Source: a virus
Strand: one strand, 5' to 3'
Virus record (IMG/VR): IMGVR_UViG_3300042673_001035
Coordinates: 52,681 to 116,680 of that record
Length of the DNA: 64,000 bases
Position numbers and translations under genes: made by a program. A model generated the notes under the pieces. That model was not told where the DNA came from, ran no database searches, and saw only the letters and a program-made list of their open reading frames with translations. Below are positions 2,872 to 49,364 of the stretch, in pieces. Positions within the stretch are counted from its first letter, which is position 1, and each line of letters starts with the position of its first letter.

Positions 2872-3255
2872 TTATTTTCTTTTAGCTACTACATTATTGA
2901 TTGCAGTTCTTGATTTCGTACGTTTATCTGAAAATTGATAAGCTAATTCATTACTTTCTTTTGATTTTCTCCAAGGTTTCTTACTAAGTCTATTGGTATT
3001 TAGGTATATACACAATGAACCGATACCAGGTACATATTGCCTACCTGAATTGATTAAATAATTTTGTACCAATTGAAGTGTTGAATTTGAAAATTCCCTA
3101 TCTTCTCTTAAAGCAGAGTTATCATATATATTTGCAGTCTGCATGCAAAGATGATAGAAGTCTGTGTATTGTTTAGTATATTTATCTGTCCATGTATTTG
3201 GTGGCATTGTTTCACCAATAATTTGTTTTACTTTTGTTGTTTTCACTTTACTCAT
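2872..3255 (-). CDS. Unknown basic protein, 127 aa
   Basis: Not recognised. Both ends are basic (MSKVKTTKVKQI; a C-terminus of KRTKSRTAINNVVAKRK), with a Tyr/Asn-rich centre. Nucleic-acid binding is possible from composition alone. It lies between two similarly basic small genes in a compact run without promoters. Confidence 0.65.
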   Translation of the reverse strand: MSKVKTTKVKQIIGETMPPNTWTDKYTKQYTDFYHLCMQTANIYDNSALREDREFSNSTLQLVQNYLINSGRQYVPGIGSLCIYLNTNRLSKKPWRKSKESNELAYQFSDKRTKSRTAINNVVAKRK

Positions 3256-3278
3256 TTTGTTTCTTTTTTATTTATTAA

Positions 3279-3677
3279 TTATTTATCGGTGTCCTCACCA
3301 TTTGCGGTTGTTGATTCTACATTGATACTACCACCATTGTAGTATGTACTATAAGCGGTGTCCAATGACAATTTGTTTGAAACCAATGCACCCTCTAATG
3401 CATTAGTTGCAATCAATTCCTTTTTATCTTTCTTACTCAATACATTTTTTATCAATGAGGTTTCTAACTTATCCATTTTAGTTTCTACTTCAATCTCACC
3501 TACATACTTACGAACACTTTCTTCGTCAACAAAGATACGAGGTTTGTCCATCTTGGGACCTGATAACTCAATCACTTCGTAGATATGTTTACCATCACCG
3601 AAATTGAATTTCTTATTCTTCACTACAGCTTTATAACCTCTCTTACCTAGCTTAATTTCTTTTACTTTCTTATTCAT
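3279..3677 (-). CDS. Unknown basic protein, 132 aa
   Basis: Not recognised. The first 25 residues are strongly basic (MNKKVKEIKLGKRGYK). A Pro/Glu-containing middle and a Ser/Thr-rich tail ending EDTDK follow. The N-terminal pattern (KVKKVxRxxK, then a short strand, then PK or GPK) resembles the gene at 4704, so the two may be distant paralogues. Confidence 0.65.
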   Translation of the reverse strand: MNKKVKEIKLGKRGYKAVVKNKKFNFGDGKHIYEVIELSGPKMDKPRIFVDEESVRKYVGEIEVETKMDKLETSLIKNVLSKKDKKELIATNALEGALVSNKLSLDTAYSTYYNGGSINVESTTANGEDTDK

Positions 3678-3741
3678 ATATTATCTTTTAATGTTTTTAA
3701 TTACTTCGTTCATTGGGTACCAGGGTATTGACCTTTGCATA

Positions 3742-4059
3742 TTAATGTGTTGAATTTAATTCATAATGAAACTTTTGTAATTGTTTCGTTTCATATTCGT
3801 GAGCGGATTTCTTTCCTCTAATTACTTTGAGGATAAACAAATCATAAACTGACTCACTATGTTCTCTCATATCGTTGTATAAGGACCAGTTTTTGTTTTC
3901 TTTTCTCGCTCGACTAAAGTGTTTTTGTAATCTTAATTTCGCAGAGTAGTGGAAACGTCTACCTATTGCGGCAGTAATACCAATATAACTCTTACCATTT
4001 TCAGTATTGACTATCTCATATACTACATGGTTTCTATCGTTTCGTTTCTTTCGTACCAT
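3742..4059 (-). CDS. GIY-YIG nuclease-like protein
   Basis: The first 35 residues match the GIY-YIG fold: VVYEIVN, then GKSYIGIT, then an Arg in GRRFHYS. A later Glu in AHEYETKQL suits the metal-binding position of the family. At 105 aa it is a bare catalytic domain, as in free-standing homing-type nucleases or small phage nucleases that cut DNA. The start overlaps the end of the gene at 4023. Target unknown. Confidence 0.8.
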   Translation of the reverse strand: MVRKKRNDRNHVVYEIVNTENGKSYIGITAAIGRRFHYSAKLRLQKHFSRARKENKNWSLYNDMREHSESVYDLFILKVIRGKKSAHEYETKQLQKFHYELNSTH

Positions 4060-34723: not shown

Positions 34724-36016
34724 CTACCAAACGATAGTTTCGTCATCGGTTGTCTCATCATCTTTCACTTCATTGAAAAGTTGAGACTCATCATCCGACT
34801 TAATATATTTTTGTAGTAATTGAGTCATAAATACTCTCTCACTATCTAATCCACCATCATTACTGAAATAAGGTAAGATTGCAATGTTTGCTGCTTCAAA
34901 CAATGTGAAACCATCATAGATAAGTCCAGCAGCTTCTACATTCACACGGGTAGAAACGATAGTTGAAATCTTACTTGCGTCAGTCTTAATCAATTGACGA
35001 GTAGTGTCAGCAATCTCTGCTAATGCGTTCAATGAATACTCATCAGCTTCAGGAAACTTAAACTTCAATAAGGCAAGTTCACCCTCTTTGTCCAATAAGT
35101 CCATTTCAATTTGAACAAATCTATCCATCAATGCTCTATCCATTACTCTCGTAGCGGTGTATTCTCCACCAATATTGGCCGTCGCGATAAACGTCACGCC
35201 ATTTGCAACTTTTACAATTGGTGAACCTTCCGCCTCATCCAAACGTAAGTATCTTTGACCAGCATCTAACACAGTCATTAAGATATTCGCAGCTTCTGGG
35301 TGAGCTCTACTCAACTCATCCAATAAGATAATTGCGTTCGGTGTTTTGATTGCTTTAACGAATGCTGATTCACTAAAGAAAGTACCACTCTCTTTGTTGA
35401 AATGTGTGTTACCGATTAAGGTTGCTCTCGCATCTTGTGTAGCACCTAAGTTGAAATAGAAATCAGGTCGTTTCAAAGACTTCACTAACGATTGTGCAGC
35501 TAATGTCTTACCACAACCCGTTGGACCTGTCATTAAGATATTCTTACCTCTAACTGCTGAACGGAGTAAATACTTCCACTTCAATTCTTCAATGAATAGT
35601 CCGTTTGGTTTTAAGTCCTTACCCTTTGTATGGATAAATTCTTTTAGTAAGTCATGTGTTTCAAATGCTTCTTGTACTGAATCACACGCCTCATCCGATA
35701 TAGTAGCTGAATGTTTTTTGAACTCATCCATCTCTACCATTTTGTAGGATAACTTACCTGTTTTACCTATGTAAGCTTGGATTGCTTTATTCTCATCCAT
35801 TGCTTTTTTCATAGTTTGTTTACTTACACCGGCTAACTTAGTTACCGGTTGATTGTTTGTGGTTAACATTGCAAATGTTCTACCGACTTGAATTACTTTG
35901 TAAATTTCATTTGTGAAACCCACTGTGAAATCTTTCACTTTTGTTGTTGTTCTTTTTACCATTGTTTTTGTAGTTTTAACTTTATTAACTTTTTTGTTAG
36001 TTTGATTAGTTCGCAT
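34724..36016 (-). CDS. MoxR/CobS-type AAA+ ATPase
   Basis: Walker A GPTGCGKT is at residues 164-171 and Walker B IILLDE at 229-234. It matches the MoxR/CobS group of AAA+ ATPases, which act as chaperones with a VWA-domain partner. The N-terminal ~130 residues are basic and extra. 430 aa. It lies next to a VWA/CobT-like gene (36243), a pairing known from CobST cobalt chelatase and MoxR-VWA systems and from several large phages. Own promoter at 36052. Confidence 0.85.
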   Translation of the reverse strand: MRTNQTNKKVNKVKTTKTMVKRTTTKVKDFTVGFTNEIYKVIQVGRTFAMLTTNNQPVTKLAGVSKQTMKKAMDENKAIQAYIGKTGKLSYKMVEMDEFKKHSATISDEACDSVQEAFETHDLLKEFIHTKGKDLKPNGLFIEELKWKYLLRSAVRGKNILMTGPTGCGKTLAAQSLVKSLKRPDFYFNLGATQDARATLIGNTHFNKESGTFFSESAFVKAIKTPNAIILLDELSRAHPEAANILMTVLDAGQRYLRLDEAEGSPIVKVANGVTFIATANIGGEYTATRVMDRALMDRFVQIEMDLLDKEGELALLKFKFPEADEYSLNALAEIADTTRQLIKTDASKISTIVSTRVNVEAAGLIYDGFTLFEAANIAILPYFSNDGGLDSERVFMTQLLQKYIKSDDESQLFNEVKDDETTDDETIVW

Positions 36017-36051
36017 AACTTTATAATGTTTAATTGGTGAATTGTTTACAC

Positions 36052-36081
36052 AATATACGACTTTTTTCCCGTATCACCAAA
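36052..36081 (-). promoter_or_regulatory. Phage promoter before MoxR
   Basis: Minus strand reads TTTGGT, 15 nt, TCGTATATT, with a ~35-nt leader before ATG 36016. The dyad at 36091-36113 lies just upstream of it, where a bound protein could affect initiation. Confidence 0.85.
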
Positions 36082-36090
36082 TCTATTTTT

Positions 36091-36162
36091 AATTGATTGA
36101 TTATTAATGAGTTATAGGCAGTAAAAAGACCTAATACATAACTCATTGATTATCAACGGATT
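36091..36162. repeat. Two 23-bp dyads
   Basis: Dyads lie at 36091-36113, directly before the MoxR promoter, and at 36140-36162, inside the loop of the terminator stem 36123-36181. Confidence 0.7.
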
Positions 36163-36181
36163 AGTGTTTTTAGGTCTTTTT
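36123..36181. terminator. Terminator-like 12-bp stem enclosing a dyad
   Basis: AAAAAGACCTAA pairs with TTAGGTCTTTTT; the loop holds a dyad (36140-36162). T-runs lie on both sides, so it could work in either direction. It ends VWA-gene transcription before the MoxR promoter. Confidence 0.8.
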
Positions 36182-36242
36182 TACCTATATTTGTGAAAAA
36201 TGGGACCCGAAAGTCCCAAATTTCACTTTGGGCTTTCCGAGC

Positions 36243-38537
36243 CTATTTTTTGTTTTTAGATAGGAATAATTCGTTCATAGTTTTAGCGACTTCAAACATA
36301 TTTTCCACGTTGACATATTTTGCGTCATTTCCATACATTGTTTTGAATGCTCTCCAATCGGATGAATGTTCAAAGTTACTACCATAATCGGTAATAAAGT
36401 ATGAAAGGACATCTATACCACTATCTCTAATTTTTTTCACTTGCTTTTTAGTGTGTAATGCAGCAGGTTCACCTGAATACTGAATTTCATCACTACCTCT
36501 ACTAATTGAGTAAGAGGGTTGACCATCAGAAAAGTTTAGGAAATACGATTGACTTTCATTCGTTGACGGAACTAATTGTTTCAATATTGCCTCAAAACAC
36601 AATCCTTCTGGTGTAGTGTTGTTTGCTTGTAAGATAGACATATATCTTGCGAATTGTCTAAATGAATCTCTACGACTATCGTGGATAATTGCAACATATG
36701 GTAAACAAGTACTACCTCTATCAGTAGAACGAATTGAAACTTGTACATTGATATTACGAGCCATCTCACATGCTTTCACAATAGCGACAGTTGATACAAT
36801 ACATTTTCTCAATTTATCACCACTCATTGAACCAGAATAGTCAATTGATATATGTAGGTTTGCTTTTTTGAATTGGTCAACTTCGTTTGTGAAAAACACA
36901 TTCTCATTATCATAACCCAATGACGCAACCATACGACCATCAATCTTACCTCTTTTCAATCTACTGAATACCGTCTCACGACTTTCACTACGAACTTGTA
37001 GTTTCTTACCCAATAGTGTACCTAATGTTGTACCTCTACGAACTTCGTCAGCTGCCCATATCTTTGGTTCACTTGTGTTCCAATCATTATGTGAGAATGG
37101 AAAGTCATCCGACTTCAACATATTTTCGGTCAATCGTTTCACTACGATACAATCAACACCTTTCATCACACTACCATGTCTATCCATACCATTACCAACA
37201 CGAACCAATTCGGTATCTGATTCTTGAATGTCTTTCAGTTTCTCCAATTCATTCTTTTGGACATTCTTCTTTTTGATATTACCATCAATAAAGTCTTTTT
37301 GCTTTTGGATTTTCTTATCCAATTGTTTTTTAGCAGCATCGGATAACTTCACTTTGGTATTACCTTGCTGACCTTGTCCGTCATCGGTGTTACCCAATTT
37401 AGCAGTTACTTGACCACTCATTTGTCCATCCGTTCCACCCATATCACCGTTGTCATCATTATCATCATCTTCATTGATATCGGCAATTTCTATTTCACTA
37501 TCACCATCACCATCCGTTCCACTTTCACCTTTACCCTTACCTTTACCTTTCATCATTTGTGCGTTATCGTAAGGGACAGTTTTAAGTATCTCAGCAAGAA
37601 TGTCTACTGCTAATTGGAAACTATCTTTTGTTGATGTCAAACGACTAATGTCCTTTAAGTTCACTAAACGATAGATTGCTCTCAATCCTTTCAATTTAGA
37701 TAGGTCAGTTTTCTCATTCATCAAGTTAATGATACGGAACATATAGGCTTCGAATGTCTCATCCGTATATTCATCACTCTCAATACCTTTAGTTACAATC
37801 TTATCGTTGAAATAGTTATCATACATTTGAGTATAATAATCTCTATAACCAGGTGCAGTTTTGAATATGTGCATATCAATACGTCTATCCTCTACCCAAT
37901 TGGTAAGAGAACTAATGATATTGAATATCTCATCATTCATACTACCCTTACTACCAATCTTACCCGTTGACAAATACATCTCATTGAATAGATTTTCGTA
38001 TATTGGATATTGACAAGTATATTTTCTAATCTGAGCATCCACTTTATCAATAGTCCAACTGATTGGTAGATTGTTCTCAATTTCATTTTGAGTATCACTA
38101 TTGATTTGTCTTTGTACTCTTTCGTAGTTAGATAACATATCGTTCATATTAGACAACAACTTAAAGTCCGACAATATAATGTGTGAACCTTCGTGTAATG
38201 CTAAACCAACCGACACGTCGAATTTGTCATCAACATCGGCCGAAAGAATAACTCTCTTACCATCCGTTTTACTATCACTTTTTGTAGCGAATGTAACGGG
38301 TATGTTTTTTTGTGTAACGATTTGTACGAAGTTAGAAATAGCTCGTCTTACTGATGCTAACTTATATAGGTTGTTAGTCTTTTTATACAAGTCTAAATCT
38401 TGTTTTTTGAAACCACCATAGGTTTCTAATACATCATACGAAGTGTCATAATCATCATACCAAAATGATGATGCGTAACTTTTACCTTTTGTTAGGTAGT
38501 CTTTCGTACCTGTCTTGAATTTGTCATACCAACTCAT
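36243..38537 (-). CDS. VWA-domain CobT-like protein
   Basis: A C-terminal VWA domain carries the MIDAS motif DYSGSMS at residues 566-572, and FLNFSDGQPSYS near its end. The middle (331-395) is a Gly/Asp/Glu-rich low-complexity linker, as in CobT. The N-terminal part has HEGSH at 115-119 and NWVEDRRID at 213-221, a pattern shared by VWA proteins of this type. 764 aa. It probably partners the MoxR ATPase at 34724 to remodel a target complex. Own promoter at 38587. Confidence 0.85.
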   Translation of the reverse strand: MSWYDKFKTGTKDYLTKGKSYASSFWYDDYDTSYDVLETYGGFKKQDLDLYKKTNNLYKLASVRRAISNFVQIVTQKNIPVTFATKSDSKTDGKRVILSADVDDKFDVSVGLALHEGSHIILSDFKLLSNMNDMLSNYERVQRQINSDTQNEIENNLPISWTIDKVDAQIRKYTCQYPIYENLFNEMYLSTGKIGSKGSMNDEIFNIISSLTNWVEDRRIDMHIFKTAPGYRDYYTQMYDNYFNDKIVTKGIESDEYTDETFEAYMFRIINLMNEKTDLSKLKGLRAIYRLVNLKDISRLTSTKDSFQLAVDILAEILKTVPYDNAQMMKGKGKGKGESGTDGDGDSEIEIADINEDDDNDDNGDMGGTDGQMSGQVTAKLGNTDDGQGQQGNTKVKLSDAAKKQLDKKIQKQKDFIDGNIKKKNVQKNELEKLKDIQESDTELVRVGNGMDRHGSVMKGVDCIVVKRLTENMLKSDDFPFSHNDWNTSEPKIWAADEVRRGTTLGTLLGKKLQVRSESRETVFSRLKRGKIDGRMVASLGYDNENVFFTNEVDQFKKANLHISIDYSGSMSGDKLRKCIVSTVAIVKACEMARNINVQVSIRSTDRGSTCLPYVAIIHDSRRDSFRQFARYMSILQANNTTPEGLCFEAILKQLVPSTNESQSYFLNFSDGQPSYSISRGSDEIQYSGEPAALHTKKQVKKIRDSGIDVLSYFITDYGSNFEHSSDWRAFKTMYGNDAKYVNVENMFEVAKTMNELFLSKNKK

Positions 38538-44113: not shown

Positions 44114-44150
44114 ACTATTTTTAGTAACATTGGGGTTCAATATATTTTGC

Positions 44151-44234
44151 GGAAGCTCAGGGATTCGAACCCCAGATACCTTTCAGTATGACGGTTTTCA
44201 AGACCGTTCCATTCAACCACTCTGGCAAGCTTCC
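44151..44234 (-). tRNA. tRNA-Ser(UGA)
   Basis: Acceptor GGAAGCT/AGCTTCC, class II variable arm, anticodon loop CTTGAAA (anticodon TGA), T-loop TTCGAAT. 84 nt, complete. It follows the gene at 44242 and precedes the promoter at 44084. Confidence 0.95.
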
Positions 44235-44241
44235 TATTCTA

Positions 44242-44514
44242 CTAATAGATATGTGTTTCTTCGTTTCTGAAAGTATCTGCATCTAAAAAAGTATTATCCG
44301 ATTGTCTCCTTCTAGCCTCTTCAGCTTTTTTATACCAACTAATCCAAGTCATACCAAAATCAATTGGTGCTAATAACCAAGCTAATGCAACAACCATAAT
44401 GGCATCCAAACCAGGATTTAATCCAATCATACCATCATTATATCTTTCTTGATATCGGGTGAATAATTGATAGAAACAATAGATAACACAAATAACATAA
44501 TAAGTCCAAAACAT
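44242..44514 (-). CDS. Small membrane protein, 90 aa
   Basis: Two hydrophobic segments (YYVICVIYCFYQLF and GLDAIMVVALAWLLAPIDFG) separated by a charged loop; a polar, acidic C-terminus follows. Not recognised. Directly behind the promoter at 44538. It may be a small envelope protein. Confidence 0.6.
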   Translation of the reverse strand: MFWTYYVICVIYCFYQLFTRYQERYNDGMIGLNPGLDAIMVVALAWLLAPIDFGMTWISWYKKAEEARRRQSDNTFLDADTFRNEETHIY

Positions 44515-44537
44515 AATTTTCTTTTTTAATTTTAATA

Positions 44538-44567
44538 AATATACGATAATATTTTTATATTACCAAA
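44538..44567 (-). promoter_or_regulatory. Phage promoter, consensus type
   Basis: Minus strand reads TTTGGT, 15 nt, TCGTATATT. It begins 10 bases after tRNA-Met and drives the membrane gene at 44242 and tRNA-Ser. Confidence 0.85.
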
Positions 44568-44576
44568 TTTTTTTGT

Positions 44577-44649
44577 GGGAAAGACAGGGCTCGAACCTGT
44601 GACCTCAAAATTATGAGTTTTTTGCTCTAACCAACTGAGCTACATTCCC
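44577..44649 (-). tRNA. tRNA with CAU anticodon (elongator Met or Ile2)
   Basis: Acceptor GGGAATG/CTTTCCC (one mismatch), D-arm GCTCAGTTGGTTAGAGC, anticodon loop CTCATAA (CAT). It lacks the C1-A72 mismatch of the initiator at 47745. Met versus lysidine-Ile cannot be decided from sequence alone. Confidence 0.9.
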
Positions 44650-44655
44650 TAAAGA

Positions 44656-44730
44656 AAATAAGCAGGTGTGGAGTCACCTACCTATTTTAGTGAATGAGAA
44701 ACATCTGTCTCTCTTTGTGGCTCTATCACT
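44656..44730 (-). ncRNA. Hairpin RNA segment between tRNAs
   Basis: The gap between tRNA-Met and the Leu-like tRNA holds a 13-bp hairpin (44656-44687, two G-U pairs, 6-nt loop) and a stem-loop closed by AGTGA/TCACT with GAG/CTC above it (44689-44730). They could be processing signals or a small RNA. Confidence 0.5.
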
Positions 44731-44744
44731 TTAGCCCATAAGGT

Positions 44745-44851
44745 GCCGGTGGAGGGATTGATTACCCACACGATGTCCATTTCGGATACATCACCTTTCT
44801 AGAATTACGGGACGTCTAATAACTGTACAATTATCATTCCGCCACACCGGC
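44745..44851 (-). tRNA. Aberrant tRNA-Leu-like gene
   Basis: A perfect 7-bp acceptor pairing (GCCGGTG/CACCGGC) and D-arm pieces GGCGGAAT and TAGACG match tRNA-Leu. The D-loop carries a palindrome-like insert ATAATTGTACAGTTAT; the anticodon region around TTCTAGAA cannot be folded normally; the T-loop is TAATCAAT with no TTC. A variable-arm hairpin (GATGT/ACATC) is present. 107 nt. It may be decayed, interrupted or functionally altered. Confidence 0.45.
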
Positions 44852-44857
44852 ATATTG

Positions 44858-44929
44858 TAGTCCGTCGTGGAATCGAACCACGAACATCTCATTAGAAGTG
44901 AGAAGTTATATCCATTTAACTAACAGACC
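44858..44929 (-). tRNA. tRNA-Arg(UCU)
   Basis: Acceptor GGTCTGT/ACGGACT with wobble, anticodon loop CTTCTAA on stem TCTCA/TGAGA, T-loop TTCGATT. About 72 nt. Confidence 0.92.
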
Positions 44930-44932
44930 ATT

Positions 44933-45096
44933 AGTTGTTCTAACTTGCAAGTTTACTCTTAACATTTCTTTCTCTACAACGACTGAACTTAATCACATTT
45001 GTAGTCCGAATGTTGCTTTGGGTAATTACTCCATGCATCTATGTAACTCTATATACCTTACCTTGTCAATAGGTGTGTTAAGTGTATAGAACAACT
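44933..45096 (-). ncRNA. Structured RNA closed by a perfect 10-bp stem
   Basis: Between tRNA-Arg and tRNA-Asp, AGTTGTTCTA (45087-45096) pairs perfectly with TAGAACAACT (44933-44942), enclosing ~144 nt without an ORF. It ends three bases from tRNA-Arg. With the next entry it tiles the whole gap. Likely a novel small RNA or a tRNA-precursor domain; no family recognised. Confidence 0.6.
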
Positions 45097-45098
45097 TT

Positions 45099-45170
45099 AA
45101 AACACAATCACCTCACATCTTCAGGTGTCCAAATTGCCGAGCTAATTGCATAACAATTTAATTGTGTTTT
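45099..45170 (-). ncRNA. 72-nt structured RNA closed by a perfect 10-bp stem
   Basis: AAAACACAAT (45161-45170) pairs with ATTGTGTTTT (45099-45108). Inside are hairpins AATTG/CAATT (loop TTATG) and CACCT/AGGTG. tRNA-like in size but without T- or anticodon-arm signals. It starts two bases after tRNA-Asp on the transcript. Confidence 0.6.
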
Positions 45171-45172
45171 GC

Positions 45173-45245
45173 GGACGGGACGGGACTCGAACCCGCGACC
45201 TTCGGCGTGACAAGCCGACATTCTAACCAACTGAACTACCCATCC
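45173..45245 (-). tRNA. tRNA-Asp(GUC)
   Basis: Acceptor GGATGGG/CCCGTCC, anticodon loop TTGTCAC (GTC) on TCGGC/GCCGA, T-loop TTCGAGT. 73 nt. Confidence 0.95.
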
Positions 45246-45251
45246 AATTTG

Positions 45252-45325
45252 AGCCCAAGATAAGAATCGAACTTACGACCTACTGATTACAAATCAGTTG
45301 CTCTACCAGCTGAGCTACTCGGGCT
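45252..45325 (-). tRNA. tRNA-Thr(UGU)
   Basis: Acceptor AGCCCGA/TTGGGCT, anticodon loop TTTGTAA (TGT) on CTGAT/ATCAG, T-loop TTCGATT. 74 nt. Confidence 0.95.
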
Positions 45326-45329
45326 ATTG

Positions 45330-45401
45330 TACTCAGTACGGGATTCGAACCCGTATTACATCCGTGAAAGGGATGTGACCTAACCCTTAGTCGAACTGAG
45401 C
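45330..45401 (-). tRNA. tRNA-Glu(UUC)
   Basis: Acceptor GCTCAGT/ACTGAGT, anticodon loop CTTTCAC (TTC) on CATCC/GGATG, T-loop TTCGAAT. 72 nt with discriminator. Confidence 0.95.
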
Positions 45402-45409
45402 ATTAAAGG

Positions 45410-45529
45410 AAAGTAAAAGATGGGTGCGTGGACATTTACTTTTATGATTGGCTTTACTAACCGGTAGTAGTATATTAGATTTTCACTAACTCGATTTAGC
45501 GGACTACTTTTGTTCCCAATCAACCTTAT
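45410..45529 (-). ncRNA. ~120-nt structured RNA behind its own promoter
   Basis: It begins about seven bases after the promoter at 45536. A TGATTGG/CCAATCA pairing (45516-45522 with 45445-45451) closes a domain with inner AGTAGT/ACTACT and a TTAG/CTAA hairpin. An 8-bp hairpin AAAGTAAA/TTTACTTT (45410-45442) follows and may be a 3'-end signal. No ORF. tRNA-Glu and others follow. Confidence 0.55.
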
Positions 45530-45535
45530 AAATTA

Positions 45536-45565
45536 AATATACGATAAATAATTTACTTTACCAAA
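45536..45565 (-). promoter_or_regulatory. Phage promoter inside the tRNA cluster
   Basis: Minus strand reads TTTGGT, 15 nt, TCGTATATT. It lies between tRNA-Leu(UAG) and the ~120-nt structured RNA, which it probably transcribes together with tRNAs Glu to Met. Confidence 0.85.
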
Positions 45566-45571
45566 TATTGT

Positions 45572-45645
45572 ACCCGTAATAGGACTCGAACCTATAATTG
45601 TATGGCTTCTAAGACCACTGCGTATGCCAATTCCGCCACACGGGT
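45572..45645 (-). tRNA. tRNA-Leu(UAG) with short variable arm
   Basis: Acceptor ACCCGTG/TACGGGT, D-region GTGGCGGAATTGGCATACGC, anticodon loop CTTAGAA (TAG) on TGGT/GCCA, T-loop TTCGAGT. 74 nt, so the variable region is only about six bases instead of the class II arm expected for leucine. Confidence 0.88.
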
Positions 45646-45650
45646 GTTGG

Positions 45651-45722
45651 GGTGTAAGGACGGTACCGACCCGTCTTATCCGGCTCCACAAACCGACGCA
45701 TCACCTTAATGCTTCAAACACC
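45651..45722 (-). tRNA. tRNA-His(GUG), poorly paired acceptor
   Basis: D-arm GCAT/ATGC with loop TAAGGTG, anticodon loop TTGTGGA (GTG) on TCGGT/GCCGG, T-stem GACGG/CCGTC. The acceptor GGTGTTT/TTACACC has two mismatches at its base and the T-loop is GTCGGTA rather than TTC-type. Probably functional but atypical. Confidence 0.7.
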
Positions 45723-45728
45723 ATTTGA

Positions 45729-45797
45729 GGTCAATGTTGGAATCGAACCAACTCCATAAGATTTGCAGTCCCACCGGCCTCCACGACCAAACTGACC
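45729..45797 (-). tRNA. tRNA-Cys(GCA)
   Basis: Acceptor GGTCAGT/ATTGACC, D-arm GGTC/GGCC, anticodon loop CTGCAAA (GCA), T-loop TTCGATT. 69 nt. Confidence 0.9.
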
Positions 45798-45805
45798 ATA
45801 TAGTA

Positions 45806-45875
45806 GTCCTATTAGGAATCGAACCCAAACTAAAACATCCGTAGTGTTTCGTGCTATCCAATTACACCATAGAAC
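45806..45875 (-). tRNA. tRNA-Arg(ACG)
   Basis: Acceptor GTTCTAT/ATAGGAC, anticodon loop CTACGGA (ACG) on AAACA/TGTTT, T-loop TTCGATT. 70 nt. Confidence 0.93.
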
Positions 45876-45882
45876 TAATTGC

Positions 45883-45950
45883 ACGCAGTGAAGGAATTGA
45901 ACCCTCTCCTTTGGTTTTGGAGACCAATTGGCTGCCATAGCCTACCACGC
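45883..45950 (-). tRNA. tRNA-Trp(CCA)
   Basis: Anticodon loop CTCCAAA (CCA) on TTGGT/ACCAA, T-loop TTCAATT. The acceptor GCGTGGT/ACTGCGT uses several wobbles. 68 nt. Confidence 0.9.
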
Positions 45951-45956
45951 ATTTGT

Positions 45957-46029
45957 TGGGAATGCAGGATTCGAACCTACGGCCTCTAGCTCCCAAAGCT
46001 AGCGCGATACCTGACTACGCTAATTCCCA
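45957..46029 (-). tRNA. tRNA-Pro(UGG)
   Basis: Acceptor TGGGAAT/ATTCCCA, anticodon loop TTTGGGA (TGG) on CTAGC/GCTAG, T-loop TTCGAAT. 73 nt. Confidence 0.95.
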
Positions 46030-46036
46030 TTTTTGT

Positions 46037-46106
46037 TATTCGGGCTGGATTCGAACCAGAACTAATTGCACCAAAAACAATTGTGCTACCGTTACACCAC
46101 CGAACA
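46037..46106 (-). tRNA. tRNA-Gln(UUG)
   Basis: Acceptor TGTTCGG/CCGAATA, D-arm GTG/CAC, anticodon loop TTTTGGT (TTG) on ATTGT/GCAAT, T-loop TTCGAAT. 70 nt. Confidence 0.9.
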
Positions 46107-46112
46107 ATTTGA

Positions 46113-46183
46113 GCAGATGAGAGGAATCGAACCTCCGTCTCCTACTTGGAAGGAAGGAGTAATGGCCATTATACGACATCTGC
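46113..46183 (-). tRNA. tRNA-Gly(UCC), copy 1
   Basis: Acceptor GCAGATG/CATCTGC, anticodon loop CTTCCAA (TCC), T-loop TTCGATT. 71 nt. A second Gly(UCC) lies at 46529, and a defective-looking one at 1986. Confidence 0.92.
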
Positions 46184-46189
46184 TTTTGC

Positions 46190-46260
46190 GCTTTCTGAGA
46201 ATTACGATATCCCGGCCCCATCATTAACAGTGATGTGCTCTACCTCTGAGCTAAGAAAGC
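46190..46260 (-). tRNA. tRNA-Asn(GUU), atypical T-arm
   Basis: Acceptor GCTTTCT/AGAAAGC, D-arm AGCTC/GAGCA, anticodon loop CTGTTAA (GTT) on CATCA/TGATG. The T-arm is GGGAT, ATCGTAA, TTCTC with a changed T-loop (ATC for TTC). It follows the terminator at 46268. Confidence 0.88.
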
Positions 46261-46459: not shown

Positions 46460-46522
46460 TAATTTAATTTCAAAATACGCCATCCAAGTCATGCTCTGGT
46501 TAATACAAGCCTCATTAAATTA
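46460..46522 (-). ncRNA. RNA domain closed by a 9-bp AT stem
   Basis: TAATTTAAT (46514-46522) pairs with ATTAAATTA (46460-46468) six bases after tRNA-Gly on the transcript, enclosing ~45 nt with a GG/CC-containing interior, then CTTTTTG. AT-only stems can arise by chance, but the position copies that of other closed domains in the cluster. Confidence 0.4.
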
Positions 46523-46528
46523 CTATTG

Positions 46529-46600
46529 AGCGGGACTAAAGAATTGAACTTCAACTTCCCCCCTGGAAGAGGGGTGTGCTACCGTTACACTAATTCCGCT
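46529..46600 (-). tRNA. tRNA-Gly(UCC), copy 2
   Basis: Acceptor AGCGGAA/TCCCGCT (one mismatch), D-arm GTGTAACGGTAGCAC, anticodon loop CTTCCAG (TCC) on CCCCT/GGGGG, T-loop TTCAATT. 72 nt. It follows the large structured RNA by a few bases. Confidence 0.88.
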
Positions 46601-46603
46601 TAT

Positions 46604-47511
46604 AAATAGATGAGAATACTCTATTTGGTGAACCAGCTTTAGAAAGATTATTTGTTTCCTTCCGTTTCCACTACCTTTTGAGTAGTACCAATTCAATGTG
46701 GATGATTTTAGACTATCAGTCTTTAAGTTGCCGATTACTCTCTACTTACTTATTTTCTTCAAGCCTCGCAGCCTGATTAATTCTTGCGGAATTAGAAACC
46801 TTTCGATAGAATCACAGACCTCTTGCGGAGGTATCGTGGCTAAGAACATCTCTTAACTATGTACACACCTTTCATCTGCAACTGGTAAACACTCATGCTT
46901 AATTTTTAAATTGTAGTTTTTACACCTTAGTAAAAATTGAGTTTTAGTTTATAGAATCATTCAGGTAGTGGTTTACCACTAGCTCCCCCATCTTTTGAAC
47001 GAGAGAATACTAAACTACCCGATGCAATATCCCTACTGCGGTTTTTTAAGTCATCTTCATTTATAGGTTTTGGTAAACTCTATAAAAGGATGGTAACAAC
47101 ACCACTTGTACACTATCTTATCTTGCGTCCTTTCGGATGGCTTGATGTTAAGATAACTTTGAAACTGAATACCGCAATGATGTAGAGGGATTAAGTCTAC
47201 ACTTCTTACTGATATTCTATGGGTTATTCTTATTGTTGTTCCCAACTCAGTCGGAGTATCTATACTACCCCAACTATTCAAACTCTTCCGATATAGTGTT
47301 ACCCTTTCGTACAAAGCTCAAATAATATCCCACTTGCCTACTCAAGCTAGTCTCTCCTTACGGGGAGAGTAGCCGCAGATGTATCACTTAATACACCCAC
47401 TTTATCCTACTTTCGTAGTTTATTTGACCACCATAGGCGGCGGTTGTTTACTATGTGAGACGAACTCACTATGTAAAATATTTTAATCTTTAAAAGAACT
47501 TCTTTTTGGTT
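46604..47511 (-). ncRNA. Large (~900 nt) structured noncoding RNA candidate
   Basis: The region behind the promoters at 47518 and 47622 has no convincing ORF but many local hairpins on the minus strand: GTGAG/CTCAC (TTCGT loop), CTAC-GAAA-GTAG, TGTAT/ATACA, CTCTCC/GGAGAG, TGTAGA/TCTACA, TCC-GAAA-GGA inside a TCTTA/TAAGA pairing, TAGTGGT/ACCACTA, ACCTC-CGCAA-GAGGT, TAATTC-CGCAA-GAATTA, ending in AAATAGA/TCTATTT (46604-46626). Size and place beside tRNAs in a phage recall GOLLD and ROOL RNAs. Family membership is not shown. Confidence 0.65.
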
Positions 47512-47517
47512 TTAATA

Positions 47518-47547
47518 AATATACGAATAATTTTTTATTCTGCCAAA
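47518..47547 (-). promoter_or_regulatory. Phage promoter (proximal) for the large RNA
   Basis: Minus strand reads TTTGGC, 15 nt, TCGTATATT. Transcription should begin near 47511, at the edge of the structured region. Confidence 0.85.
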
Positions 47548-47621
47548 TTTATTTAAAACTTTTTTTTGTAAATTTGATAACGAGTATCTTTCATCACCTA
47601 TTGTTTCTCATTTACTTATGT

Positions 47622-47651
47622 AATATACGAAACATTTTTTACACTACCAAA
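47622..47651 (-). promoter_or_regulatory. Phage promoter (distal) for the large RNA
   Basis: Minus strand reads TTTGGT, 15 nt, TCGTATATT. It lies ~100 nt upstream of the proximal promoter and faces the same way, giving the large RNA tandem promoters; the stretch between (47548-47621) has no ORF. Confidence 0.85.
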
Positions 47652-47744
47652 TTTATTTTCAAAAAACTTTTTAAGATAATCGGTGTCCGGCTTTAACACA
47701 TAGTCGGTTTTATTACTATTGGCTTCAACCAATCATCTTATTTG

Positions 47745-47816
47745 TTGCAGGAGAAGGATTCGAACCTCCGACCTTGTGGTTATGAGCCACGTGAGCTACC
47801 TCTGCTCTATCCTGCG
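47745..47816 (-). tRNA. Initiator tRNA-fMet(CAU)
   Basis: The acceptor GCAGGA/TCCTGC is preceded by C1 and followed by A72, the mispaired C1-A72 that marks bacterial initiators. D-arm GAGCAGAGGTAGCTC and anticodon loop CTCATAA (on GTGG/CCAC) also follow the initiator pattern. T-loop TTCGAAT. CCA is not encoded. It has its own promoter (47828). Confidence 0.88.
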
Positions 47817-47827
47817 ATATTAAATGT

Positions 47828-47857
47828 AATATACGATAACTTTTTCAAATTACCAAA
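47828..47857 (-). promoter_or_regulatory. Phage promoter before initiator tRNA
   Basis: Minus strand reads TTTGGT, 15 nt, TCGTATATT, 12 bases before the mature tRNA 5' end. Confidence 0.85.
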
Positions 47858-47867
47858 TATATTTTTT

Positions 47868-48234
47868 TGGTGGAGATGAGGGGAATCGAACCCCTGTCTT
47901 ACAAAGAACTAATAATATCAGCATTTCACACGTTTAGGATAAAGTTTAATCTTATTAACTTTCCAAAATAATTGAGGTCGGATGGTTAGTCCAACTTTCC
48001 ACCAACTGATTTAAGGTTTCAGTAAACTCATCTCACATTCTATTTAAAGTCCCATGATGTGTACGGGATTGGTTAGGCTGCTACAGCGTAATCCATACCT
48101 ACAAATGCCATAAGGTCATTGTAAGTCATTGTTGACTTTTCGTCTTTTGTTGTTTTGCAAGTATTTAAAGACATTCATGCTTTGTCTACGTGTGATACTA
48201 CCATTTACATTGCAATCAAGTCCATGGCATCCCC
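47868..48234 (-). ncRNA. ssrA: tmRNA
   Basis: The ends pair as a tRNA-like acceptor (GGGGATG with CATCTCC), with a T-arm AGGGG, TTCGATT, CCCCT and an encoded A-CCA 3' end. The tag frame ends in codons for MDYAVAA followed by TAA. Downstream GC-richer segments fit the pseudoknots. 367 nt, one-piece. tmRNA frees stalled ribosomes and tags the peptide for proteolysis. A phage copy may protect late translation or recognise host stalls. Confidence 0.92.
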
Positions 48235-48247
48235 AATTTGTTTACAC

Positions 48248-48277
48248 AATATACGATAAATATTTGATACTACCAAA
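48248..48277 (-). promoter_or_regulatory. Phage promoter before tmRNA
   Basis: Minus strand reads TTTGGT, 15 nt, TCGTATATT, 14 bases before the mature tmRNA 5' end at 48234. Confidence 0.85.
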
Positions 48278-48324: not shown

Positions 48325-48702
48325 TTATATTAATGTATTTTTATAAAGCTCAAAATCATCATCAAAATTTTCATAACATACTACTATTTCTTCATTTGGA
48401 TAAATATCTCTGGCTGCTATCATTTTATCTTTACCCAATTCAATAGAATTTGGATTATTACTATGATTTTGAAAAATCGAATGGTCACATGATGAATAAT
48501 AGTAATCTCCCTCTCTCCAAAAATATTTATCGATATGATTTTTTTGAAGTTCAGTTAGGGTTTCATATTTTTCTTTATGAACTTTTATATCAAATCCTTC
48601 AATAAATTGCCAAATTATGGTATTTTTTGGAATAAATTCTTCAGCAAATAAACCCAATCCTTTATTTAAAGACTCACCCAAATATGTTTTTATTAATAGC
48701 AT
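48325..48702 (-). CDS. SET-domain protein, 125 aa
   Basis: From ATG 48702 (MLLIKTYLGESLNKGLGLFA), which avoids overlap with the upstream gene. SET motifs are seen: KGLGLFAEEFIPKNTII, FQNHSNNPNSIE (the NHS..PN core) and YPNEEIVVCYENFD. Such domains transfer methyl groups from S-adenosylmethionine to protein lysines. It is a minimal catalytic unit without pre- or post-SET parts. In a phage the target may be a host ribosomal, DNA-associated or phage protein. Confidence 0.75.
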   Translation of the reverse strand: MLLIKTYLGESLNKGLGLFAEEFIPKNTIIWQFIEGFDIKVHKEKYETLTELQKNHIDKYFWREGDYYYSSCDHSIFQNHSNNPNSIELGKDKMIAARDIYPNEEIVVCYENFDDDFELYKNTLI

Positions 48703-48710
48703 TTTATGTA

Positions 48711-49364
48711 TTATTCCGTGTAATCCCAATTTGTATCGGATGGTCTCCATTTACCAAAATCTTCACATTTCCACACTTTTGTAGAATATCTAAAATATGG
48801 TATTTGAGTAATATCTACCGTTCTACTGGGTTGATAAAATCTTGTTCTATTATTTGGTTGTGCACAAAACTGACCATTTTCTAATTTAGATATGTTATAA
48901 CACTTGTGTTCGTTTGGGGTTTCACTCCACCCACAATCTATCTCATTTGGGTCAGAATGAGATGTATCAATTGTAAAAAGATAATCACCACCAATTACCG
49001 AATGGTCTTTCATTGTAGTATAGGTTTTAACACCCCTTAACACCCTTTTTTCGATGACTGATATGTTATATGATAGACAATCCCAAAGTTGTAAGAAGTC
49101 CAAAGGAAACACCGTATCTGTCGATTCTAATGGTCTCCAACGGAATGCATGGATAGGTAATTTGTCATATACTGCACCAAATGTGTCAATGTATGTTTCA
49201 AATAACAATGCACGATTTGGAATTGATTTAACACTTACCCAATGTCCTCTTTCCCATTCACCATCTCCCAAATAATTACCCTTCTCATCTTTTTGAAAAT
49301 CGTATAGAAATTTCTTATCAATTAAGACTTCAATTGGTGGTATGTTGGCAACCAAATAACTCAT
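48711..49364 (-). CDS. Conserved phage protein, 217 aa
   Basis: The sequence MSYLVANIPPIEVLIDKKFLY, HWVSVKSIPNRALLFETY, YDKLPIHAFRWR, DYLFTIDTSHSDPNEIDCG, and LENGQFCAQPNNRTRF matches a protein widespread in large phages. Its activity is unknown. It is soluble and full length. It lies upstream of the SET gene and downstream of the AdoMet decarboxylase homologue, the three overlapping or abutting. Confidence 0.75.
   Translation of the reverse strand: MSYLVANIPPIEVLIDKKFLYDFQKDEKGNYLGDGEWERGHWVSVKSIPNRALLFETYIDTFGAVYDKLPIHAFRWRPLESTDTVFPLDFLQLWDCLSYNISVIEKRVLRGVKTYTTMKDHSVIGGDYLFTIDTSHSDPNEIDCGWSETPNEHKCYNISKLENGQFCAQPNNRTRFYQPSRTVDITQIPYFRYSTKVWKCEDFGKWRPSDTNWDYTE

What the first reader, a model, noticed from the sequence alone, without database searches (positions are those of the whole stretch)
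46604..47511. A ~900-nt structured RNA behind tandem promoters in the tRNA array
Two copies of the phage promoter (47622-47651 and 47518-47547) point into a ~900-nt stretch with no credible gene. On the transcribed strand it contains at least ten local hairpins, among them two GAAA tetraloop hairpins and two different stems capped by the same CGCAA loop. It ends in a hairpin four bases before a tRNA. Phage genomes are known to carry very large ornate RNAs (GOLLD, ROOL) next to tRNAs, and this region matches them in size and setting. Whether it belongs to either family or is a new class cannot be read by eye. If new, it is the most interesting object here.
Basis: partly seen in the sequence, partly recalled or inferred. 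Interest (0 to 1): 0.9.

Follow-up and report, generated by a model that had tools for sequence, protein, structure and literature searches.

The report
A GOLLD RNA beside initiator tRNA
The stretch encodes a full-length GOLLD RNA, a known giant phage RNA that folds into hollow cages, and comparing about 190 relatives shows that its gene often sits beside a gene for the special tRNA that starts protein synthesis, which hints at what the cage may be for.

Summary
A ~900-nt non-coding RNA lies on the minus strand behind two phage promoter copies and ends four bases before tRNA-Gly. It is not a new class. Rfam GOLLD (RF02032) matches 46607-47022 over its whole length at 281.5 bits (cut-off 150). 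The 5' half, which Rfam does not model, is also GOLLD: 59 dereplicated viral homologues align over ~840 nt, and 161 of 192 predicted pairs show compensatory changes. Pseudoknots and a loop-linker contact consistent with the GOLLD cryo-EM structure also covary and are present here. By homology this is a cage-forming RNA; no transcript or cage was shown for this phage.

What may be new lies next door. The tRNA(CAT) upstream of GOLLD is an initiator tRNA (C1xA72). Among 60 GOLLD loci dereplicated at 85% identity, 35 carry an initiator-type tRNA(CAT) on the same strand within 600 nt. CAT tRNAs make up 28 of 53 tRNAs near GOLLD against 16 of 208 farther away, and the far ones are mostly elongators. 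tmRNA is also more frequent in GOLLD phages (30/50 against 5/37 controls). The link is not universal: two cultured Acinetobacter phages examined have GOLLD without it. I found no published mention. Verdict: new member of a known kind, with a testable translation-linked lead.

The parts
46607..47022 (-). GOLLD 3' domain (conserved ring domain)
   Evidence: RF02032 281.5 bits, model 1-416 complete, E 2.5e-79; 67 of 82 consensus pairs with compensatory change
47023..47444 (-). GOLLD 5' domain (cap domain), not covered by the Rfam model
   Evidence: Full-length homology to ~190 viral GOLLD loci; 90 of 108 consensus pairs with compensatory change, 96% of cells paired versus 37-41% when slid
47445..47511 (-). 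Unconserved leader between inferred transcription start and the 5' domain
   Evidence: Low conservation in the 62-sequence alignment; start inferred from the promoter position
47518..47547 (-). Proximal promoter copy TTTGGCAG..TCGTATATT
   Evidence: conserved in L046 and L155
47622..47651 (-). Distal promoter copy TTTGGTAG..TCGTATATT
   Evidence: conserved in L046
46884..46977 (-). Pseudoknot helix GGUAAA (46977-46972) with UUUACC (46889-46884)
   Evidence: All six pairs covary, 97-100% standard pairs in 59 sequences; letters
46696..46868 (-). Pseudoknot helix GUGUG (46868-46864) with CACAU (46700-46696)
   Evidence: Four of the five pairs listed as covarying, 100% standard; letters
46951..47263 (-). 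Three-pair contact between a 5'-domain loop (AUA 47263-47261) and a 3'-domain linker (UAU 46953-46951); the majority has GUG/CAC
   Evidence: this phage itself carries the compensatory version
46616..46666 (-). Single tertiary pair A46666-U46616, consistent with the terminal loop (L27) to J24/26 contact of the cryo-EM structure
   Evidence: AU 28, UA 27, CG 4 of 59; contact described in PMC12286853; assignment inferred
46528..46599 (-). tRNA-Gly(UCC) directly downstream; RNase P cleavage at its 5' end is the inferred source of the GOLLD 3' end
   Evidence: ARAGORN and Rfam; spacing 11-21 nt from the UCUCA motif in most loci with a close downstream tRNA
47744..47816 (-). Initiator-type tRNA-Met(CAU), C1xA72
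47828..47857 (-). Promoter copy just upstream of the initiator tRNA
47868..48234 (-). tmRNA
   Evidence: RF00023 79.8 bits, cut-off 47
48248..48277 (-). Promoter copy just upstream of tmRNA
44149..46260 (-). tRNA array downstream of GOLLD

Best explanation
This is a phage-encoded GOLLD RNA of about 905 nt. It is transcribed from one or both tandem promoters (start near 47511). Its 3' end is most likely released by RNase P when the tRNA-Gly four bases downstream matures. It folds into a 5' cap domain and a 3' ring domain joined by a variable linker, and by homology assembles with copies of itself into a closed RNA cage like the 14-mer solved for GOLLD env-38. Shown here: family membership, both domains, covarying secondary and pseudoknot structure, gene order. 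Inferred: transcription, processing, cage assembly. Most likely purpose (inferred, much weaker, about 0.3): it works with the phage's own translation parts, meaning the adjacent initiator tRNA, the tmRNA and the tRNA array, for example by storing or shielding ribosomal or tRNA cargo while the phage takes over translation. The confidence below is for the identity as a GOLLD RNA.
For: RF02032 at 281.5 bits end to end. 5' domain homology and covariation. Non-nested helices and a terminal-loop contact consistent with the cryo-EM description. The self-complementary loop dinucleotide that switches GC/CG between homologues, reported for bridge B8, shows both states in the alignment, with GC here. Same gene order tmRNA - initiator tRNA - GOLLD in relatives L046, L073, L150, L155, L019, L097, L117. 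Initiator tRNA enrichment and tmRNA excess. Kretsch et al. report cages for GOLLD and state that ribosomes bind GOLLD in pull-downs (PMC12286853).
Against: No expression or structure data exist for this phage. Neighbourhood is not mechanism: 25 of 60 GOLLD loci lack a nearby initiator tRNA, and two cultured Acinetobacter phages examined carry GOLLD without one. GOLLD in this clade has an enlarged hairpin relative to most homologues, so its oligomer could differ from 14.
Confidence: 0.93

Rival explanations
1. GOLLD is present, but its neighbourhood to the initiator tRNA is only the habit of phages to collect tRNAs and small RNAs in one island; the two have no joint function.
For: Initiator-type CAT tRNAs are also common in control phages (17 of 58, plus 15 with a weak first pair). 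GOLLD without a nearby initiator exists. Presence/absence changes at least 12 times on the tree, which also fits loose linkage.
Against: CAT makes up 28 of 53 tRNAs within 600 nt of GOLLD but 16 of 208 farther off in the same contigs and 60 of 646 in control contigs; near ones are 21 initiator, 6 weak, 1 unclear, 0 elongator (85% dereplication). In many loci it is the only tRNA found nearby. Both upstream and downstream placements occur, switching at least four times on the tree.
Confidence: 0.45
2. It is a new large-RNA class, or ROOL, that only resembles GOLLD.
For: Size and setting alone would allow it, and the 5' half is not in the Rfam model.
Against: Full-length GOLLD match. The 5' half is shared by ~190 loci that carry the GOLLD 3' domain. 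No ROOL match at E<=1.
Confidence: 0.01
3. The stretch is a protein-coding or decaying gene region with chance hairpins.
For: An 85-aa frame exists at 47057-47314.
Against: The frame is broken in 10 of 11 relatives; differences to L046 show no codon-phase bias (18/13/13); 21 of 23 substitutions at paired sites keep the pair.
Confidence: 0.01

Closest known systems
GOLLD RNA (Rfam RF02032), GOLLD env-38 structure (PMC12286853)
   Same: Complete 3' domain match, two-domain layout, variable AT-rich linker, GAAA loop, self-complementary GC/CG loop, terminal-loop contact, Met-tRNA upstream (env-38 was also found downstream of a Met-tRNA), tRNA setting
   Different: This clade has a ~17-nt extension of one 5'-domain GAAA hairpin (around window 47122-47145); flanking tmRNA and initiator tRNA; host probably Bacteroidota; oligomer not measured
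GOLLD of Acinetobacter phages Bestia (MW316733) and vB_AciJM_313 (PX050566)
   Same: GOLLD over the cut-off (221.8 and 207.2 bits) inside a tRNA array; in Bestia a tRNA begins about 10 nt after it
   Different: Only the 3' domain is recognisably alike by blastn; no initiator tRNA next to it
ROOL RNA
   Same: Phage RNA cage near tRNAs, similar size (PMC12286853)
   Different: Different sequence and fold; no match here

Membership tests
GOLLD (RF02032) | Score above the curated threshold over the whole model | tested here: met
   281.5 bits against 150, model 1-416
GOLLD (RF02032) | Conserved 3' region with covarying stems | tested here: met
   82 pairs, 67 with compensatory changes, shuffle z about -106
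GOLLD (RF02032) | Structured, less conserved 5' region, total length often over 800 nt | tested here: met
   108 pairs, 90 compensatory; ~841 nt conserved core
GOLLD (RF02032) | Location in phage or prophage near tRNAs | tested here: met
   IMG/VR record of 116,680 bp; 14 tRNAs plus tRNA-Met
GOLLD (RF02032) | Self-complementary L21a dinucleotide (bridge B8) and terminal-loop contacts seen by cryo-EM | tested here: met
   CCGCAAG loop with GC here and UCGA (CG) in others; A46666-U46616 covaries; loop numbering assigned by inference
GOLLD (RF02032) | Expression rising at lysis | not testable with these tools
   No RNA data for this phage
GOLLD (RF02032) | 14-mer D7 cage | not testable with these tools
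   Needs the RNA in vitro
ROOL | Match to the ROOL covariance model | tested here: not met
   Only GOLLD and two tRNAs found at E<=1 in 46500-47860

The most novel reading that the evidence does not exclude
GOLLD cages belong to a phage translation-takeover module together with a dedicated initiator tRNA and often a tmRNA: the cage handles ribosomes or initiator tRNA during infection. The recurrent, strand-matched linkage of GOLLD to an initiator-type tRNA would be a direct genomic pointer to GOLLD function.
Probability: 0.3. Interest if true: 0.8.

Novelty: new member of a known kind. Interest (0 to 1): 0.42.

Why it matters
GOLLD makes one of the largest RNA-only cages known, and its function is unknown. 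A full-length member with covariation in both domains adds a clean sequence for structure work, and ~190 homologous loci give a deep alignment of the 5' cap domain that Rfam lacks. The excess of initiator-type tRNA next to GOLLD, and of tmRNA in the same phages, turns 'function unknown' into a specific, testable idea about translation start or ribosome handling. Cultured phages with GOLLD (for example Acinetobacter johnsonii phage vB_AciJM_313) make experiments possible.

Tried and rejected
Blastn of the stretch against cultured phages found no full-length match, only a weak one to a 642-kb uncultured phage; other GOLLD members as queries reached Acinetobacter phages. The 3'-motif scan of bacterial genomes returned 118 chance hits and no GOLLD by the profile, so no host conclusion was drawn. 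Flavobacterium phage immuto and Microcystis phage Mel-JY01, which share the baseplate protein at 40-44%, were tested as lab models: no GOLLD, no tmRNA and no initiator tRNA matched. A protein-coding reading was rejected. ARAGORN missed divergent CAT tRNAs; a covariance model recovered ten or so beside GOLLD. Original GOLLD papers (Weinberg 2009, Morgado 2020) are not held, so whether they mention initiator tRNAs could not be checked; no held paper contains both 'GOLLD' and 'fMet'.

Full report
What was checked. The claimed stretch was read on the minus strand. Two copies of the phage promoter TTTGG-N20-TATATT run from 47651 and 47547 towards it; the window has 16 TTTG-N18-21-TATATT sites, all on the minus strand. 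The same pair at the same spacing precedes the homologue in L046 (94% identical), and single copies occur in several other relatives. The GAAA hairpins, the two CCGCAAG-capped stems and the final hairpin ending four bases before tRNA-Gly (46599) are all there. No frame is credible as a gene: the 85-aa frame at 47057-47314 is broken in 10 of 11 relatives, and substitutions relative to L046 show no codon phase.

What it is. Rfam identifies GOLLD (RF02032) at 46607-47022, complete, 281.5 bits against a threshold of 150, E 2.5e-79. Nothing else but two tRNAs is found at E<=1 in the stretch, so it is not ROOL. Rfam models only the 3' domain. A DNA pattern from that domain and one from the 5' half, followed by a profile built from 62 aligned homologues, gave 194 other GOLLD loci from viral contigs. 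They align with this RNA over ~840 nt, 5' half included.

Structure. In 59 dereplicated sequences, RNAalifold predicts 192 pairs, 161 of which have at least one compensatory double change. Taken separately, the 5' domain has 108 pairs, 90 compensatory, with 96% of cells paired against 37-41% when partners are slid; the 3' domain has 82 pairs, 67 compensatory; both lie tens of SD below column-shuffled controls. A mutual-information scan found covarying pairs outside the nested structure that exist here letter for letter: GGUAAA/UUUACC (46977-46972 with 46889-46884), GUGUG/CACAU (46868-46864 with 46700-46696), and a 5'-to-3' domain contact AUA/UAU (47263-47261 with 46953-46951), where most homologues have GUG/CAC. 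A single pair A46666-U46616 (AU/UA/CG among homologues) is consistent with the terminal-loop to linker contact in the cryo-EM paper. The loop whose middle dinucleotide switches GC/CG, reported as the self-kissing bridge B8, shows both states in the alignment and GC here.

How it most likely works. Shown in the literature: GOLLD env-38 forms a 14-mer hollow cage of RNA alone, with the 5' domain as cap and the 3' domain as ring; GOLLD rises during lysis; ribosomes are said to bind GOLLD in pull-downs (PMC12286853). Inferred for this phage: transcription from about 47511, release of the 3' end by RNase P at tRNA-Gly (in most loci with a close downstream tRNA, it begins 11-21 nt after the UCUCA motif), and self-assembly into a cage.

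The neighbourhood. Upstream of GOLLD lie tRNA-Met(CAU) at 47744-47816 and a tmRNA at 47868-48234, each behind its own promoter copy. The tRNA has C1xA72 and the GAGCAG..GGCUCAUAACC body of initiator tRNAs (that these mark bacterial initiators is general knowledge). The order tmRNA - initiator tRNA - GOLLD is kept in L046, L073, L150, L155, L019, L097 and L117. Across GOLLD loci dereplicated at 85% with both flanks present (60 loci), CAT tRNAs are 28 of 53 within 600 nt on the same strand, against 16 of 208 elsewhere in the same contigs (Fisher p 1.8e-12) and 60 of 646 in control viral contigs; the near ones are 21 initiator-type, 6 with a weak first pair, 1 unclear and no G-C elongator, while the far ones are mostly elongators (control). 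No tRNA near GOLLD lies on the opposite strand. A covariance model found further divergent ones missed by ARAGORN, giving 35 of 60 loci with a linked initiator-type tRNA: 22 upstream, 13 downstream. On a GOLLD tree, presence changes at least 12 times and side at least 4 times, so this is not one inherited arrangement. tmRNA passes the Rfam threshold in 30 of 50 GOLLD records but 5 of 37 control records; contig sizes and kinship were not matched, so this is weaker evidence.

Limits. The link is not universal. Cultured Acinetobacter phages Bestia and vB_AciJM_313 carry GOLLD (221.8 and 207.2 bits) inside tRNA arrays, with tRNA-Met more than 1 kb away and not initiator-like. Control phages also carry initiator-type tRNAs quite often. 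At 70-75% dereplication the CAT excess stays significant, but the initiator-versus-elongator contrast becomes weak with small numbers. Fisher tests on related loci overstate significance even after dereplication.

The phage. The record is a 116,680-bp virus contig. Its baseplate wedge protein is ~40% identical to Flavobacterium phage immuto and 44% to Microcystis phage Mel-JY01; neither has GOLLD, tmRNA or a matching initiator tRNA at the thresholds used. With the TTTG..TATATT promoters this suggests a contractile-tailed phage of Bacteroidota; host is inferred.

Judgement. It is a new member of a known kind. The part that deserves follow-up is the recurrent initiator-tRNA linkage, for which I found no statement in the papers that could be searched; the original GOLLD papers were not held.

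Noticed in passing
47868-48234 (-), tag frame 48073-48174: Phage tmRNA not reported by ARAGORN in the window; by homology with L015 the tag would be unusually long (about 23 aa, ...DYAVAA).
   Followed up: partly
window, minus strand (48277, 47857, 47651, 47547, 45565, 44567, 38616, 36081, 14540, 12038, 2582 and others): A shared promoter TTTGG-N20-TATATT repeated about a dozen times, all on one strand; a ready regulon for this phage.
   Followed up: partly
around 47122-47145 (-): This clade (L046, L073, L015, L150, L151, L011) has a ~17-nt extension of a 5'-domain GAAA hairpin that is short in most homologues; it may sit near the cage opening.
   Followed up: partly
L449 (MW316733.1), L450 (PX050566.1), PP763259.1: GOLLD in cultured Acinetobacter phages (confirmed by Rfam in Bestia and vB_AciJM_313, blastn only in others); in phage Ab15 the matching stretch is annotated as a hypothetical protein.
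   Followed up: partly
L132 8680-8753, L034 1411-1484, L018 5988-6061, L002 4066-4139: A second, divergent family of CAT tRNAs beside GOLLD (body GGGGGGAGGUAAGG / GGUCUCAUAAGCC) that ARAGORN misses.
   Followed up: partly
L451 (LR745206.1) 2821-2894 and ~3010-3838: A 635-kb uncultured phage has GOLLD with an initiator-like tRNA(CAT) about 100 nt upstream.
   Followed up: partly
48325-48750 (-): A small SET-domain protein (putative methyltransferase) next to the tmRNA.
   Followed up: no
L443 53-1750 (genome position about 35052-36749): A Nol-like carbamoyltransferase gene (PHROG 1601) in the phage.
   Followed up: no
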